Part shown: piece by piece, positions 15,926 through 23,123 of the stretch
Numbering within the stretch: position 1 is the first letter of the stretch
Layout of the letters: each line of letters starts with the position of its first letter
Assembly: GCF_000317435.1 (NCBI RefSeq)
Contig: NC_019751.1
Location: forward strand, 6,696,001 to 6,760,000
Origin: Calothrix sp. PCC 6303
Lineage (GTDB): Bacteria; Cyanobacteriota; Cyanobacteriia; Cyanobacteriales; Nostocaceae
Direction: 5' to 3'
Length of the DNA stretch: 64,000 bases
Notes under the pieces: generated by a model
The model's database searches: none
What the model saw: the letters and a program-made list of their open reading frames with translations, nothing else
What the model was told of the DNA's origin: nothing
Translations under genes and position numbers: made by a program

Positions 15926-17233
15926 ATGGCTCCCAATCCTGCCATTATGCAAGCAGTGGAAAAGCTGGGATATCGCGTCACTATTGGTGATGTGGCAACC
16001 CAAGCGGGGTTAAATGTCGAACTAGCAAGTCAGGGTTTATTGGCTTTAGCTGCGGATGCTGGGGGAAATATGCAGGTATCCAACTCTGGTGATGTTGTTT
16101 ACCTTTTTCCTAAGAATTTCCGCGATGTTTTACGGAACAAATACTTTCAAATCAAGCTACAGGAATGGTGGCAGAAAATTTGGGGTGTTTTATTTTACTT
16201 AATTAGGTTATCGTTTGGCATATTTCTCATCGCATCAATGGTTCTGATTTCCATCACCTTGATTGCCATCAGTATCGCTGCAACCTTTAGTAACGATAAT
16301 GATAATGGTGGTTCTGGAGGTGGAGGAAACTGGGGCAATTTCTTCTTTTTTCCCGATTTTTGGTGGTACACCAGCCCAAATTATGGAAATGACTACGAAA
16401 AACGTCAGCGGGAGAAAAAAGAACTCAATTTTTTTGAAGCTGTTTTCTCATTCTTATTCGGGGATGGAAATCCTAACGCTAGGTTAGAGGAAAAACGCTG
16501 GAAACAAATTGGTGCTGTAATTCGCAGCAATCGCGGTGCTGTGATAGCTGAACAAATTTCCCCATATTTAGATAATATCGGTGAGACTTATCAGCAAGAA
16601 TATGAAGATTATATGCTGCCTGTACTAATTCGATTTGATGGTAAACCGGAAGTTAGTCCCGAAGGACAGTTAGTTTATTATTTTCCCAAGTTACAAGTGG
16701 GTGCTGTAAAAAGACAACAGCAAAGATTTTCGACATTTTTAGAAGAAATTCCCTTCAAATTTAGTAATGCAACTTCTGGTCAACTGTTTCTCAGTGCAGG
16801 CTTAGGTATACTCAACCTAGGTGGTGCTTTGGTGTTGGGTAGTTTGCTTAAAGGTGGTGCTTTGGCAGCGCAATTAGGTGGATTGGTGGCATTTGTCCAG
16901 AGTATTTACTGGGTATTATTATTTTATGGTGTTGGCTTTATCAGTGTGCCTTTGATGCGGTATTTTTGGATCAAGTGGCGTAATACTAAGATAGCGAAAC
17001 GAAACCGCGATCGCATCTCCCGTGCAAAGCTATTAGCTACTGCAAATCCAGATTTAGAAGCCAAAATTGCCTACGCTAGCCAATTCGCATCAGAAACTAT
17101 CATCACTAGAAAAGATTTAGCATATTCCACTGAAACTGACTTACTAGATCAAGAATTTAAGAGCTTAGAACCAGGAGATGACGATTTTGATAATAATGAA
17201 GAGAATAACTTAGATAATTACAGCAGATTTTAG
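15926..17233 (+). CDS. Conserved cyanobacterial membrane protein of unknown function
   Basis: This 435-residue protein has no enzymatic motif that I recognise. The N-terminal ~75 residues (AVEKLGYRVTIGDVATQAGLNVELASQGLLALA) look like a small winged-helix-type fold. A hydrophobic segment follows at about 88-120. A Gly/Asn/aromatic-rich loop (GGSGGGGNWGNFFFFPDFWWY) leads into a soluble middle portion, two or three more hydrophobic segments sit at about 285-350, and the tail is acidic. An AGGAG-type site (TAGGAGACC) lies about 12 bases upstream of the ATG. Similar proteins are widespread in cyanobacteria and plastid-bearing eukaryotes, from family memory. The product probably sits in the thylakoid or plasma membrane. 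Confidence 0.75.
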   Translation: MAPNPAIMQAVEKLGYRVTIGDVATQAGLNVELASQGLLALAADAGGNMQVSNSGDVVYLFPKNFRDVLRNKYFQIKLQEWWQKIWGVLFYLIRLSFGIFLIASMVLISITLIAISIAATFSNDNDNGGSGGGGNWGNFFFFPDFWWYTSPNYGNDYEKRQREKKELNFFEAVFSFLFGDGNPNARLEEKRWKQIGAVIRSNRGAVIAEQISPYLDNIGETYQQEYEDYMLPVLIRFDGKPEVSPEGQLVYYFPKLQVGAVKRQQQRFSTFLEEIPFKFSNATSGQLFLSAGLGILNLGGALVLGSLLKGGALAAQLGGLVAFVQSIYWVLLFYGVGFISVPLMRYFWIKWRNTKIAKRNRDRISRAKLLATANPDLEAKIAYASQFASETIITRKDLAYSTETDLLDQEFKSLEPGDDDFDNNEENNLDNYSRF

Positions 17234-17553
17234 ATTAATAAGTTACCCAAATAAAATCTCAGACACTGTAGAAGTAAGATATTATACCTGGACGTAGTTC
17301 GACTGCAACCTCTAAGCTGCGCTCAGTGTGTAGCTTAGAAAAATCAACTTCAAGAAAATGTATTTGTTTTTCTTCAAGCCTTCTGATATTTTCTTTTCTA
17401 CAGTGATTTTTTTGGTCAGAGCGATCGCGTGATGTAACGCTCTAGATTTTTCAATATTTTTACTAAAACTTTTTGATAAACTCCTTAAATTTCACGCTGA
17501 ATCTGAGTATATCATTTGGCTCTTTAGTTTCTTTTGGTAGAGTCGTAAAAAAA
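17234..17553. other. Intergenic gap at the left border of the RT/SLATT island
   Basis: There is no gene. An 8-bp inverted repeat TCTAAGCT/AGCTTAGA (17311-17318 and 17332-17339) lies 78 bases after the upstream stop codon and may terminate it. One HIP1-type site is at about 17422. Confidence 0.5.
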
Positions 17554-18174
17554 TTAACAAGATGAATATAATAAAAATAAAATTGGAGGTATTCCTAAGA
17601 CAAAAATATATAACCAGTAATCTTTAATAATCAGCTTCATTCTTATATAAAATCCAGCAAGCCTACTTATGTTAAAGTCTTTTCTGTTTTGTGCTTTGAA
17701 AAAATCATAGTCTTCTGGTTCATGATTTTCAGAACACTTTTCGATTAAATGCTCGTATTGAAGTGACATATCGCCCAATTTTTGAAGAAAATCTGCATCC
17801 CCTGATTTACTGATGATCAAGTACTCAAGTTCTCTTTGCAAGTTTGATATCTCTACTGCATTTTTATGTAGTTTTTCTGCTTTAAGCTGATAATTTTTTG
17901 CCCCTTCTAACAAACTAATAGCTAACGTAAATACAGATAAAATCAAAGAAATAGCATTGTATATCTCATTTATTTTCTGGCATTGAGGATTTCTCACAAT
18001 ACCTTGAATAACTGGAATTGCTATACCATATACAGATAGTATTGAAATACTGTTAAGTGAAAATTGGTACTTATTGTTTAGTCTTCGCGCTGCATTGAAA
18101 CGAGAACCTTTAGTTATCCAAATTCTTCTGCTTAATGATTCAGCGTATTCTTTTGAGTCGCTATTACTGTTCAT
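17554..18174 (-). CDS. SLATT-domain membrane protein, putative effector of an RT defence system
   Basis: This 206-aa protein has an N-terminal amphipathic stretch (SLSRRIWITKGSRFNAARRLN), two adjacent transmembrane helices at about 38-60 and 70-90, a helical cytosolic region and a C-terminal hydrophobic helix at about 183-203. The layout and the IW-x2-R-x3-RL pattern resemble the SLATT_5 family (SMODS/SLOG-associating 2TM effectors). These are predicted to be pore-forming effectors in nucleotide- or nucleic-acid-triggered defence and are reported next to reverse transcriptases. It lies 237 bases downstream of the RT gene on the same strand. Base composition is AT-rich like the RT and unlike the flanking core genes. 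The assignment is by pattern memory, not by a search. Confidence 0.72.
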   Translation of the reverse strand: MNSNSDSKEYAESLSRRIWITKGSRFNAARRLNNKYQFSLNSISILSVYGIAIPVIQGIVRNPQCQKINEIYNAISLILSVFTLAISLLEGAKNYQLKAEKLHKNAVEISNLQRELEYLIISKSGDADFLQKLGDMSLQYEHLIEKCSENHEPEDYDFFKAQNRKDFNISRLAGFYIRMKLIIKDYWLYIFVLGIPPILFLLYSSC

Positions 18175-18219
18175 TTATCAGAGGTATATGCTATGCAGTT
18201 ATACAATAGAAATAGAAGC

Positions 18220-18411
18220 ATAGTTTGTAAATTCAAAGGCGAGCCTGCCTAGTGATGATAACAACGACAACCACTCCTAAAATAAGCTTTAGGAGGTCAA
18301 GCCCCAAAGGGAGTTTGATTACATGCGCCCCTGAACTATTATATCCAGGAGATCCTGCAATCATACGAATGCAGGAGACAGACTCGCTTGTAATGATTCT
18401 AACATCACTCA
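18220..18411 (-). ncRNA. Candidate structured RNA between RT and SLATT genes
   Basis: Reading 5' to 3' on the minus strand, this spacer has TCCTGCA/TGCAGGA (7-bp stem, 10-base loop, about 18350-18373), CTCCTAAA/TTTAGGAG (8-bp stem, 6-base loop, about 18275-18296) and weaker AGGC/GCCT and CCC/GGG pairings. Its base composition is visibly more GC-rich than the two genes around it. Several antiviral RT systems carry a template ncRNA beside the RT, so this is a plausible location. It competes with the small-ORF interpretation of the same DNA. Confidence 0.35.
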
Positions 18412-18412
18412 T
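18233..18412 (-). CDS. Small ORF (59 aa) coupled to the RT stop codon, single-pass membrane peptide
   Basis: The ATG (18412-18410) overlaps the RT stop codon as TGATG, a classic translational-coupling arrangement. The peptide starts MSDVRIITSESVSCIRM and ends in a hydrophobic segment (LDLLKLILGVVVVVIIT) followed by RQARL, so it would be a single-pass membrane peptide. I do not recognise the family. The overlap favours coding; the strong hairpins in the same DNA favour an RNA role. Both could be true. Confidence 0.4.
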   Translation of the reverse strand: MSDVRIITSESVSCIRMIAGSPGYNSSGAHVIKLPLGLDLLKLILGVVVVVIITRQARL

Positions 18413-19953
18413 CAATATAACCAACTATCATCTCTCTCTAACTCTGATAAATTTCTCTGCTTAATAGCCTCAAATAACTTTTCAATTTCTTCTCCTGAGT
18501 ATTCTTTCTCAGGCTCAAGATGCCCTCTTTGTCCAAGAAAATCGCTTTTTTGCTTGACTGTTTGGTAACTATTATAGTCATGTATATAACCACCTTCAGG
18601 ATTATACTTAGCCTCATAAAAAGCTCGTGAAATTTTTTTTAAGTTAGCGGGAGGAATTCTATCAAAATCTTCCAATCTCTTAAATAAGCCAGCAATTATA
18701 TTATCTATCTTGTAGAGTACAGACATGTCATTAATAGCACTAAAGTAAAAGATCCAACCATATTTTCGTTTTTCACTAATAGCACCGGTAATTTTTTCAT
18801 TTAAATTAACAACAAAATTTTCTTTTAACTTATCCACAGCATACTTCGACTGTAAATTTTTTGTTCGATTATGGATGTAACTGCTAAATTTAGCAGTTAT
18901 TGAATGAATAAACCTTTCTATTGTAGATAACCTAATTGTAACTGTAGGTAATTTAAAGCGATATCCAAGATATTCAAACTCTTCTTGACCGCTCTTTTTG
19001 TATGTTTTATTGAAGTTGCAATTAAGGTCGATATTTTTCAATTCACTTTTAAATAATATTTCTATTTTGTCAATTTTATCTTTTTCAGAGAAAATTAATA
19101 TGTCATCTACATATCGATAATAGACATTAACGCAATTATGATTTTTTATGAGATGATCAAAATCATACAAGTAAATATGTGCAAGAATATTTGATATGGA
19201 TAAACCTTGTGGTATACCTATACCTTTAGATTCCTTAACATATTCTTTTCTGTCTTTTCGGCTATAATTATTAGGAACAATAGGTGTTTCGATAGCTTTT
19301 TTAATTAATGATAATAGTTTATATGATTTTATTCGTTTTTTTAATTTTATGAATAACTTTTCTCTATTAATTGATCCATAAAAATTTTCTACGTCTGCGC
19401 GAAGTATACTAACTTCGGAAGGTGATCTACTAGAAACAAATTTTTTAATATCATAAATATAGGTATTAGCTAATTTACGTGGAACACAGTCTGGAAATAT
19501 TTGAAATAGAATTTCTTTTAATGCATATAAAACAATTCTATCACGCACTGTTGGAATTGCTAGGAGCCTTGGAGGCTTATCTCTTCCTTTAGATCGCAGT
19601 AATTCTAGATAGGGTGAAAATCTATATGTTCCATTCAAACACTTCTTCTTGATTACTTTAAACTGTGACTTACTTTGCTTTCTAAATTGAATACCGCTAA
19701 GTCGGTCAATACCTTTAGTTGTGCTCGATTCAAATTTGTCATCATAAATTTTCTTCAAAGATTTTATTTTGACAGAAGATTTTAGTAATTCATAAGGTGT
19801 TTGAGAGAAATGGGACGAACATAAGGAACTAGGATGAGAGACATTCTTGTCTTTCTCGACTTTTTCTGGCAAATCTAATGCCACTTGTATTTGGGATGTA
19901 TTGCTCATCTTAGAAAAAATAGATAACTTTGGGCTATCAACATATTTACCCAT
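18412..19953 (-). CDS. Reverse transcriptase, SLATT-associated (likely antiviral DRT/Abi-type)
   Basis: The 513-residue RT has recognisable palm motifs: RLLAIPTVRDRIVLYAL (129-145), motif A RADVENFYGSI with D187, GIPQGLSIS (246-254), catalytic YVDD (281-284) and EYLGYRF (327-333). No maturase X domain, HNH nuclease or CRISPR context is visible, so it is unlikely to be a mobile group II intron protein. No retron-type NAxxH element or msr/msd is obvious either. About 160 helical C-terminal residues follow the RT core. The neighbour encodes a SLATT protein, a pairing known for antiviral RTs. The gene is AT-rich and inserted between core cyanobacterial genes, which suggests horizontal acquisition. 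ATG at 19953 is used; an internal ATG 15 codons later is possible. Confidence 0.88.
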   Translation of the reverse strand: MGKYVDSPKLSIFSKMSNTSQIQVALDLPEKVEKDKNVSHPSSLCSSHFSQTPYELLKSSVKIKSLKKIYDDKFESSTTKGIDRLSGIQFRKQSKSQFKVIKKKCLNGTYRFSPYLELLRSKGRDKPPRLLAIPTVRDRIVLYALKEILFQIFPDCVPRKLANTYIYDIKKFVSSRSPSEVSILRADVENFYGSINREKLFIKLKKRIKSYKLLSLIKKAIETPIVPNNYSRKDRKEYVKESKGIGIPQGLSISNILAHIYLYDFDHLIKNHNCVNVYYRYVDDILIFSEKDKIDKIEILFKSELKNIDLNCNFNKTYKKSGQEEFEYLGYRFKLPTVTIRLSTIERFIHSITAKFSSYIHNRTKNLQSKYAVDKLKENFVVNLNEKITGAISEKRKYGWIFYFSAINDMSVLYKIDNIIAGLFKRLEDFDRIPPANLKKISRAFYEAKYNPEGGYIHDYNSYQTVKQKSDFLGQRGHLEPEKEYSGEEIEKLFEAIKQRNLSELERDDSWLY

Positions 19954-20034
19954 TTTAGCTACAGATCAGAGCATTATTAAGAACATCAGATTGATTTTTA
20001 AATCTTACCTTGAGAAGGGGATTATCGTTGTCAA

Positions 20035-20070
20035 TTTAAAATCACATAGTTAATTGCTGTCAACTTGACA
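20035..20070 (-). promoter_or_regulatory. Candidate RT promoter with palindromic operator
   Basis: On the minus strand, TTGACA (20063-20058) and TTTAAA (20040-20035) are separated by 17 bases, a good sigma-70-type spacing. The -35 element is half of the palindrome TGTCAACTTGACA (20058-20070), a possible operator. It would give a leader of roughly 75 bases before the RT start at 19953. Confidence 0.4.
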
Positions 20071-20319
20071 AAGATAGCGTTCAGTGTAAACAAAAGTTTT
20101 TCCACCCGATATAAATGTTACACTCACTCGACATCAATGCGAGTCCTTTTGCTCATAGCGATCGCGTGAGTCTAATATTGAAGTAAGTGAACGTTTACGA
20201 CAGTTATCCACTGTTCTAAAAAATACCCGAATCCCAAAAGCGCAGTCTTCTGGAGGAGAATCGCACTCTGTACTAATCGAAGCATAAAGTACCAATCTAA
20301 GCGCAGTTATCGTCCATGC

Positions 20320-20365
20320 GTGACGCTACAAATACTAATCTACGATCAGATTATCGTAGCGTCAC
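20320..20365 (-). terminator. 10-bp inverted repeat after the helicase gene
   Basis: GTGACGCTAC (20320-20329) pairs perfectly with GTAGCGTCAC (20356-20365), and a second short pairing AATC/GATT lies inside the loop. It is about 75 bases past the helicase stop and may end that transcript, although no T-run is seen. It may also be a dispersed repeat. Confidence 0.4.
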
Positions 20366-20438
20366 ACACCCTACAAGCTGGTATTTTATTTTCCCGGAAG
20401 CCCATAACTTCGCCATCAAAACTGATGGATTAAGTTAC

Positions 20439-23123
20439 TCACTCCATCACCTCATTAACTGGGAATCGATCAATTAACTGCATTGCCCGCCGAGCGTTAC
20501 GATAGAGGGCATCAGAAAGGTGTGGTACGTGGGGAATTTGAGATAGTAAATCAAGGGTACGGCGTAGAATTCGCACTACATCACCTTCATCTAAACTAGT
20601 ATGTTCACAAAGTTCTACCCATTCAACACCAAGCGCCCATTGTTCCACTAAAGAAATTATGTTGATATAACGGATTTCCAAACCGACGGGAAGGGCAACC
20701 CCGTGACGATATTGAACTTTAAGAACTGCTTTGCGGATTTTTTGCAGTCTTCCCCAAGCTTCGTCAACTTCGGCAGATAAATCAAAGCGCACAAAGCTAT
20801 CAGGACGAGGTGTTTCTGTCACCAGTGCAGCGACAATTGCCGCTAATTGCTGGGGGTCGAGGGCATCTACTTCGCCACTGGAAAGGGCTAAACCTAGCCA
20901 CAATTCATTTTCACCGCGAATGGCGGCGGCTATTTGTCCTTGTTGGGTGGGAATTAGGTTACTTAAACAGTCGAATTGCTGCAAAATGTCTATTAAATTG
21001 ACAAATTCTTCCCAGTGACGTTGGGATTGCTGTTGAACATGTGCTTCTAATTCTTCGATTTCTACTGTTAGTTCTACAACACGGTTACGACGTTTAAATA
21101 GTGAAGCTGCATTCCCACTTTGATAGAGGGGGTGTGCTTCGATTTGTGCCTGAATTGCGGTGACACGGCTGAGTTGTTCCCTGACTTCTGGTGCTAAGTA
21201 TGATAAACCTTCTGGTTCGGGAATCGATGATGCGATCGCATTCGTTTCCAAATTACCACGGCGTGAGTGTCCGGGTTTTATTTGCATCTCCGCAGGTGGC
21301 AGTAAGTTCTCTGGCACGTCAATTCTGGGAAACTCAGCATACAATTCCACCACGTCTCCGGTTGTTGCGACATACCAACGGTTGTCGCTTCCCAAACAAA
21401 TTAGGTAGGGTGCTTGTCCCGAACTGGCGGATTTGGTAATTAAAGCAGCGGTAACGGGTGTGGCAACGGGAATATTTTTACCTTTCAATCCTAAGATTGT
21501 TCCCGCCACAGCAAACCCCAACATCATCCCCAATTCTTCCTGTCTGGCTTCTACTGCTTGTTCTTGGAGTGTTTTTAACAGTTGTCGTTCAACTTTCAGC
21601 CTTTGCCGTAATTTCTCGTAAAGGGCAAGTTCATTTTCGTTCACAGCATCAATTTGGGCTTGGGTTTCACCCAGTTGACGCTGGAGTTCTGCTAAATACT
21701 CATACTGAGGTCTGAGGTGAAAATTGGCTAAATATTGTCCAAAACTGCGCTCAATTAGTTCCCTGGTTTGCTCTAAAGTGTGGGTTTGGAGCAAATTCAA
21801 CACCATGCCGTAGCTGGGTGTAAATTGACTAACTAAGGGATCTGGTTTGGATGTGGCTAAATAGGAGGCTTCCTTGGCACCTTCAAAGGGTGTTTGCAGG
21901 GTGACAACATAACCCCGGTCGTCCATTCCCCTACGTCCGGCACGTCCAGCCATTTGTAAAAATTCTGACGCATTGAGTAGGCGATGTCCGTTATCTGTAC
22001 GTTTAGAAAGGGTTGAAATTACAGTGGTTCTGGCGGGCATGTTGATTCCTGCTGCCAGGGTTTCAGTTGCAAAAACTACCTTAATTAAACCCTGCTGAAA
22101 CAGTTCCTCCACCAATACCTTCCACGCAGGTAAAATTCCCGCGTGGTGTGCTGCTATCCCTCGATACAGTGGACCTACATGTCCAGCGCGTCCAGCATCT
22201 GGATTTCGGGTCAAAAAGTCATCAATTTGCACCCGCAACTTATAGGCTTCATCAGGGTTAACCAGCCACATATCCCCTACATCCGCCACCGATTTATCGC
22301 AGCCACGGCGGCTGAAGATAAAGTAAATAGCTGGTAGCATATCTCGCTGTTGGAGATGGCTCAAGACATAATTAATACTGGGGGCTTCTGGTCTACCATT
22401 GCGACCTCGATCACCATCACCTTTGCGTTTTTTCCGTTGTGCTAGGCGGGGGTTGATGTGGGTTTTGGAGTCGTTGAGAAGGGGAAAAAGCCCCTTGGTG
22501 TTGCCGAAGTAAAATTCTAGAGGAACCGGACGAAAATCTGAATAAATGAGGTCAGTTGGTCCGTGAACCTGATTTAGCCAGTCGGTAAGTTGATCACTAT
22601 TATCGACGGTGGCTGAGAGGGCAACTAATTGGACTTCGTGGGGACAGTAGACAATAGATTCTTCCCAAACGGTACCGCGTTGGCGGTCATTCATGTAGTG
22701 ACATTCATCTAAGACTACAGCGTCAACATCTGTCAAAGAGATACCAACTTGACCGATGGGGGTGCCATAGAGCATGTTGCGAAAAATCTCAGTAGTCATC
22801 ACCAAAACTGAGGCATCGCGGTTGATGGAGGCATCACCTGTTAACAAACCAACGTTATCTTGTCCAAAAGTCTCGCGGAAATCACGGAGTTTTTGATTGG
22901 AGAGAGCTTTGAGTGGGGTGGTATAAAAGACCCGTTTCCCCCGTGATAGGGCACGATAGATGGCGTATTCGCCAATTAAAGTTTTACCCGAACCAGTGGG
23001 GGCACAAACAACGACAGAACTACCAGCATTGAGAGATGCGATCGCATCCAGTTGGAATTGGTCAAGTTCAAATGGAAATATATTTTTTGGGTCTACTCCG
23101 GAAGAAGGTGCAGGATAATTCAC
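20439..23123 (-). CDS. Ski2/Mtr4-like DExH-box RNA helicase (ISE2-related)
   Basis: The 894-residue superfamily 2 helicase has motif I APTGSGKT (41-48), motif II DECH (139-142), motif III SAT, motif VI QMAGRAGRRGM and a C-terminal DSHCT-like region (ending in a helical bundle with SLDEGDVVRILRRTLDLLSQI). It resembles cyanobacterial and chloroplast ISE2-type helicases implicated in RNA processing. GTG at 23123 is taken as start; the reading MNYPAPSSGVDPKNIFPFELDQFQ fits family N-termini. It is followed downstream by the RT island, so its 3' border marks the edge of the acquired segment. Confidence 0.93.
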   Translation of the reverse strand: MNYPAPSSGVDPKNIFPFELDQFQLDAIASLNAGSSVVVCAPTGSGKTLIGEYAIYRALSRGKRVFYTTPLKALSNQKLRDFRETFGQDNVGLLTGDASINRDASVLVMTTEIFRNMLYGTPIGQVGISLTDVDAVVLDECHYMNDRQRGTVWEESIVYCPHEVQLVALSATVDNSDQLTDWLNQVHGPTDLIYSDFRPVPLEFYFGNTKGLFPLLNDSKTHINPRLAQRKKRKGDGDRGRNGRPEAPSINYVLSHLQQRDMLPAIYFIFSRRGCDKSVADVGDMWLVNPDEAYKLRVQIDDFLTRNPDAGRAGHVGPLYRGIAAHHAGILPAWKVLVEELFQQGLIKVVFATETLAAGINMPARTTVISTLSKRTDNGHRLLNASEFLQMAGRAGRRGMDDRGYVVTLQTPFEGAKEASYLATSKPDPLVSQFTPSYGMVLNLLQTHTLEQTRELIERSFGQYLANFHLRPQYEYLAELQRQLGETQAQIDAVNENELALYEKLRQRLKVERQLLKTLQEQAVEARQEELGMMLGFAVAGTILGLKGKNIPVATPVTAALITKSASSGQAPYLICLGSDNRWYVATTGDVVELYAEFPRIDVPENLLPPAEMQIKPGHSRRGNLETNAIASSIPEPEGLSYLAPEVREQLSRVTAIQAQIEAHPLYQSGNAASLFKRRNRVVELTVEIEELEAHVQQQSQRHWEEFVNLIDILQQFDCLSNLIPTQQGQIAAAIRGENELWLGLALSSGEVDALDPQQLAAIVAALVTETPRPDSFVRFDLSAEVDEAWGRLQKIRKAVLKVQYRHGVALPVGLEIRYINIISLVEQWALGVEWVELCEHTSLDEGDVVRILRRTLDLLSQIPHVPHLSDALYRNARRAMQLIDRFPVNEVME

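What the first reader, a model, noticed from the sequence alone, without database searches (positions are those of the whole stretch)
18175..18412. RT-SLATT spacer: template RNA or membrane peptide?
The spacer starts a 59-aa ORF through a TGATG overlap with the RT stop, yet contains two strong hairpins (7- and 8-bp perfect stems) and differs in base composition from both neighbours. A dual coding/RNA element, or an ncRNA template in a non-canonical 3' position, would be unusual.
Basis: partly seen in the sequence, partly recalled or inferred. Interest (0 to 1): 0.7.

Follow-up and report, generated by a model that had tools for sequence, protein, structure and literature searches.

The report
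Template RNA of a DRT10 system
The gap between the reverse transcriptase and membrane-protein genes encodes a small folded RNA, not a protein: it is almost certainly the template RNA of DRT10, a published telomerase-like anti-phage system, here in a cyanobacterium and with its genes in a different order.

Summary
The minus-strand operon is RT (19953-18412), a 237-nt spacer, then a SLATT protein (18174-17554). The spacer has the reported TGATG overlap, a 59-aa ORF, 7- and 8-bp hairpins and higher GC.

The RT is UG17 (456 bits) and its partner SLATT_5 (214 bits). UG17 plus SLATT is DRT10 (Tang et al. 2025, PMC12632851): an ncRNA upstream of SLATT templates tandem-repeat cDNA.

The spacer holds such an RNA (18390-18234). 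It has a central stem, four stem-loops and a template loop just after SL5 carrying an A-B-A' pattern (GUUGU-C-GUUGU). The fold has z -4.9. It is kept in three diverged relatives, with four compensatory pairs and 98% of cells paired.

The 59-aa ORF is broken in every relative. Its ATG also lies upstream of the predicted ncRNA promoter, so the membrane-peptide reading is rejected.

The RT ends in Tyr513, matching the C-terminal Ser/Tyr that primes synthesis in DRT10.

This clade has the order RT-ncRNA-SLATT; in seven other UG17 loci compared, SLATT precedes the RT. The ncRNA still precedes SLATT. It is a new member of a known system. Transcription, cDNA and defence were not tested.

The parts
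18412..19953 (-). UG17-type (DRT10) reverse transcriptase, 513 aa, catalytic YVDD at residues 281-284, C-terminal residue Tyr513 (predicted priming residue)
   Evidence: PADLOC RT_UG17 456 bits, E 2e-137; Pfam RVT_1 72 bits; alignment of 13 RTs
18396..18404 (-). candidate extended -10 promoter element TGTTAGAAT of the ncRNA (relatives: TGTTACAAT, TGTTATAAT); predicted start about 18389
   Evidence: conserved in all four distinct loci; inferred from consensus, not listed by the sigma-70 scan
18234..18390 (-). DRT10 ncRNA (core, about 157 nt)
   Evidence: z -4.94; covariation; model R1
18376..18387 (-). central stem, 5' arm
   Evidence: 12 pairs with 18250-18239, two with compensatory changes
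18239..18250 (-). central stem, 3' arm
18328..18352 (-). stem-loop SL3
18297..18318 (-). stem-loop SL4
   Evidence: role from PMC12632851
18251..18273 (-). template loop; A-B-A' = GUUGU-C-GUUGU at 18271-18261, predicted cDNA repeat (GACAAC)n
   Evidence: pattern defined in PMC12632851
17554..18174 (-). SLATT_5 two-TM protein, 206 aa, predicted membrane effector
   Evidence: Pfam PF18160 214 bits; PADLOC RTasSLATT 153 bits
18233..18412 (-).
   Evidence: broken in L001-L004; no family match

Best explanation
The spacer encodes the ncRNA of a DRT10 (UG17 RT + SLATT) anti-phage system. Inferred working: a promoter overlapping the 3' end of the RT gene region starts the RNA at about 18389. The RNA folds into a central stem with four stem-loops and an open template loop directly 3' of SL5. 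The RT binds it, primes from its C-terminal Tyr513, and copies A-B (GUUGUC). It stops at SL5, the cDNA slips back onto A' (GUUGU), and copying repeats, giving single-stranded (GACAAC)n joined to the RT. By the published proposal, this cDNA controls the SLATT membrane protein, whose release during infection harms the cell. Shown here: family membership, RNA fold and its conservation, the terminal Tyr, the A-B-A' pattern, loss of the ORF in relatives. Inferred: transcription, cDNA synthesis, repeat sequence, effector control and defence.
For: RT_UG17 456 bits and RTasSLATT 153 bits; SLATT_5 214 bits. Published DRT10 anatomy: ncRNA upstream of SLATT, central stem with four stem-loops, template after SL5, A-B-A', C-terminal Ser/Tyr priming. 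Fold z -4.94. Four pairs with compensatory changes; 97.7% of cells paired against 33-50% when partners are slid. ncRNA 92.8% identical to L001 where RT DNA is 85.5%. RT ends in Tyr; other UG17 RTs aligned end in Ser or Tyr, L002 excepted. Independent Nitrospirae locus L005 matches the model upstream of its SLATT, 24 bits, E 2e-4. The same kind of fold lies upstream of SLATT in Pseudoalteromonas (z -6.3) and Pseudomonas (z -4.7) DRT10s.
Against: Only four distinct spacers, so covariation is modest (4 of 44 pairs). The window's A-B-A' alone is not beyond chance (p about 0.1) and L003's is weak. L001's predicted best fold pairs SL5 bases with the template loop. L002's RT reads five residues past the Tyr (SKNML), so its terminal priming residue is lost or moved. 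The Rhizobium fold is weak (z -1.65). No expression data.
Confidence: 0.93

Rival explanations
1. The spacer encodes a small membrane peptide translated by coupling to the RT stop through TGATG.
For: 59-aa frame with a hydrophobic stretch (LKLILGVVVVVII); a frame this long appears in only 63 of 5000 shuffles.
Against: Broken in all relatives by stops and by 1-nt and 10-nt indels; L001 lacks the ATG. No codon-like substitution pattern. No family match. The ATG precedes the predicted RNA start.
Confidence: 0.02
2. The spacer is both coding and template RNA in this strain only: a frame newly opened over a conserved ncRNA.
For: Frame open only in the window; RNA conserved.
Against: A translating ribosome would have to unfold the RNA; no sign of selection on the frame.
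Confidence: 0.03
3. The hairpins are cis-acting mRNA elements (terminator, attenuator or processing site between RT and SLATT) rather than a template RNA.
For: Intergenic position; one terminator-like call at 18309-18287 that crosses two of the stems.
Against: The stems are nested inside a long-range conserved central stem, which a terminator does not need; fold and place match the mapped DRT10 ncRNA.
Confidence: 0.03

Closest known systems
DRT10 (UG17 RT + SLATT + ncRNA; Eco1, Eco2, Eco3; Tang et al. 2025, PMC12632851)
   Same: UG17 RT with YVDD, SLATT partner, structured ncRNA directly upstream of SLATT, central stem with four stem-loops, template loop after SL5 with A-B-A', C-terminal Tyr as in Eco1 (Y444).
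   Different: Gene order RT-ncRNA-SLATT instead of SLATT before RT as in the other loci compared here; RT 513 aa against 456 for Eco3; ncRNA core about 157 nt against 137; predicted 6-nt repeat against 9 nt in Eco3; cyanobacterial host.
DRT9
   Same: RT-bound ncRNA of similar predicted structure (as stated in PMC12632851), protein-primed repetitive synthesis.
   Different: DRT9 copies a conserved poly-U tract to make poly-dA and primes from internal tyrosines; the RT here scores 46 bits for Drt9 against 456 for UG17.
Telomerase (TERT + telomerase RNA)
   Same: Template with aligning and templating segments and a boundary stem; repeat addition.
   Different: Telomerase extends DNA ends; DRT10 primes on its own protein. 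A parallel of mechanism drawn by PMC12632851, not tested here.

Membership tests
DRT10 | UG17-family reverse transcriptase with intact YVDD | tested here: met
   RT_UG17 456 bits, next best 131; YVDD at 281-284
DRT10 | Adjacent SLATT-domain gene | tested here: met
   SLATT_5 214 bits
DRT10 | Structured ncRNA directly upstream of SLATT: central stem with four stem-loops | tested here: met
   structure kept in four distinct loci (predicted, not probed)
DRT10 | Template loop downstream of SL5 with A-B-A' pattern | tested here: met
   GUUGU-C-GUUGU at 18271-18261; L001 has an 8-nt A (p 0.0004); the window alone p about 0.1
DRT10 | C-terminal Ser or Tyr as priming residue | tested here: met
   Window ends in Tyr513; priming itself not testable here
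DRT10 | ncRNA bound by the RT; RT-dependent tandem-repeat cDNA | not testable with these tools
   needs RIP-seq and DNA sequencing
DRT10 | Protection against phage requiring RT, ncRNA and SLATT | not testable with these tools
   needs plaque assays
DRT9 | RT of the Drt9 family with a conserved poly-U template | tested here: not met
   46 bits for Drt9; no poly-U tract in the loop
Small membrane protein gene | Reading frame conserved among relatives | tested here: not met
   broken in L001, L002, L003, L004

The most novel reading that the evidence does not exclude
A cyanobacterial DRT10 clade with permuted order (RT-ncRNA-SLATT), in which the ncRNA promoter lies at the end of the RT gene next to the codon of the priming Tyr. 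The template has changed between close relatives from a 9-nt repeat (AATGATAAC in L001) to a likely 6-nt repeat (GACAAC in the window) while the rest of the RNA is nearly unchanged. This would suggest that the SLATT effector does not read the repeat's sequence or length.
Probability: 0.4. Interest if true: 0.5.

Novelty: new member of a known kind. Interest (0 to 1): 0.42.

Why it matters
It extends a recently published telomerase-like defence RNA to a cyanobacterial clade with a rearranged operon. It gives a close pair of systems (window and L001) whose A-B templates differ by two bases, so whether the repeat sequence matters for SLATT control can be tested directly. It also shows that an intergenic ORF with a stop-start overlap can be a chance frame on a structured RNA.

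Tried and rejected
Rfam search of 17000-20500: nothing but chance hits. Viral contigs and phages: no relative of the RT. R1 model in 386 cyanobacterial genomes: only the own genome plus one weak hit (25 bits) with no RT or SLATT beside it, taken as chance. Structure prediction of the RT: mean pLDDT 43, unusable, so no fold search was made. RT remnants L063 and L064 hold no ncRNA or SLATT. My first count of substitutions in the ORF frame used a frame off by one; one search replaces it. SLATT_5 relatives in G173, G655 and G713 have no UG17 RT in the flank held.

Full report
OBSERVATION. On the minus strand the operon reads RT (19953-18412, 513 aa), a spacer (18411-18175), then a 206-aa protein (18174-17554). 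The RT stop TGA (18414-18412) shares its A with an ATG opening a 59-aa frame that ends at 18233. The 7-bp and 8-bp hairpins are at 18376-18353 and 18295-18274. GC is 0.47 in 18234-18390 against 0.30-0.31 in the two genes. All reported points hold.

WHAT THE GENES ARE. The RT matches PADLOC RT_UG17 with 456 bits (next 131), and the partner matches SLATT_5 with 214 bits and RTasSLATT with 153 bits. UG17 RTs are found with SLATT_5 in about 80% of cases (PMC8934634). UG17 + SLATT was shown in 2025 to be the phage defence system DRT10 (PMC12632851). There, RIP-seq maps an RT-bound ncRNA (137 nt in Eco3) upstream of SLATT, with a central stem and four smaller stem-loops. A template loop just after SL5 carries an A-B-A' pattern. 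The RT makes tandem-repeat single-stranded DNA, primed by its C-terminal Ser (S456, the last residue of 456) or Tyr (Eco1 Y444).

THE SPACER IS THAT RNA. The core 18390-18234 folds at -59.7 kcal/mol, z -4.94, none of 200 shuffles as good. The fold is a central stem (18387-18376 with 18250-18239), SL2, SL3, SL4, SL5 and a loop that is unpaired in the centroid; this matches the published description arm for arm. Loci L001-L004 (RT identity 79, 66, 61 and 61%) have the same RT-spacer-SLATT order. The spacers of L003 and L004 are identical over the ncRNA, so four distinct sequences are available. All share the consensus fold: 97.7% of cells paired against 33-50% with slid partners, and four pairs with changes on both sides (two in the central stem, two in SL2). 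Between window and L001 the ncRNA is 92.8% identical, the RT gene 85.5%, and the rest of the spacer about 86%. A model built from these finds, outside its own training set, the spot upstream of SLATT in a Nitrospirae DRT10 (L005, 24 bits, E 2e-4), though only the SL3 region aligns convincingly. Upstream of SLATT in the Pseudoalteromonas and Pseudomonas plasmid systems I find the same kind of architecture (z -6.3 and -4.7); Rhizobium is weaker.

TEMPLATE. The window loop has GUUGU-C-GUUGU (18271-18261), which predicts (GACAAC)n. L001 has GUUAUCAU-U-GUUAUCAU, which predicts a 9-nt repeat; L002 has UACG-A-UACG; L003 has only 3-nt candidates. Shuffles give p 0.0004 for L001, about 0.1 for the window and no significance for the other two, so the pattern is suggestive rather than proven here. 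A 9-nt register with a 3-nt A is possible in the window too. Two base changes (18268, 18265) separate the window's A-B segment from that of L001.

PRIMING. The window RT ends in ...DDSWLY, that is Tyr513. L001, L003 and L004 also end in Tyr, most distant UG17 RTs end exactly in Ser, and Pseudoalteromonas ends in Tyr. L002 reads on by five residues (FFYSKNML), which may make it defective or differently primed.

PROMOTER. A TGTTA(G/C/T)AAT extended -10 is kept in all four distinct loci (window 18404-18396) and would start the RNA at about 18389, the foot of the central stem. This is inferred from consensus: the hexamer-pair scan does not list it. If right, the ORF's ATG (18412) is not in the ncRNA.

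THE ORF. In L001 the ATG is absent and stops interrupt every frame; L002-L004 are likewise broken. Substitutions between window and L001 fall 2/7/5 at codon positions 1/2/3, while RT and SLATT show the expected third-position excess (116 of 223 and 35 of 50). Indels of 1 and 10 nt lie inside the frame. It is a chance frame.

GENE ORDER. In the two Nitrospirae loci and in the Pseudoalteromonas, Vibrio, Staphylococcus, Pseudomonas and Rhizobium plasmids, SLATT precedes the RT: seven loci. In the Rhodococcus plasmid no SLATT gene is listed. In the cyanobacterial clade the RT comes first. In both orders the RNA, where I could see one, lies directly upstream of SLATT. I could not see the paper's figures and its text does not discuss order, so I do not claim that nobody has seen the permuted form.

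CONTEXT AND SPREAD. The flanking genes (435-aa protein at 15926-17233, helicase at 20439-23123) are present in all 20 relatives searched, but at distant places or on different contigs there. The system is sparse: 5 of 217 genomes of the family hold a full-length RT match and two hold decayed N-terminal fragments.

VERDICT. The template-RNA reading is right and already explained by DRT10; the peptide reading is wrong. Expression, RT binding, cDNA and defence remain to be tested.

Noticed in passing
L063 (G014) about 2175-2744 and L064 (G569) about 284-845: Two decayed UG17 RT copies in related genomes, both keeping only residues about 45-233 with internal stops, without ncRNA or SLATT.
   Followed up: partly
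L002:2463-2481: The RT of Dolichospermum L002 has lost the stop after the terminal Tyr and reads five residues on (SKNML), which would hide the predicted priming residue.
   Followed up: no
L068, L070, L071, L073: SLATT_5 relatives in three other cyanobacteria (G173, G655, G713) without a UG17 RT in the flank held.
   Followed up: partly
window 15926-17233 and 20439-23123: The two conserved genes flanking the DRT10 cassette are far apart in other genomes of the family, so the cassette sits at a rearrangement or insertion junction.
   Followed up: partly
L058 (G524), RT region: The RT match in G524 (apparently the same locus as L001) is reported with one in-frame TAG, so that copy's start or integrity needs checking.
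   Followed up: no
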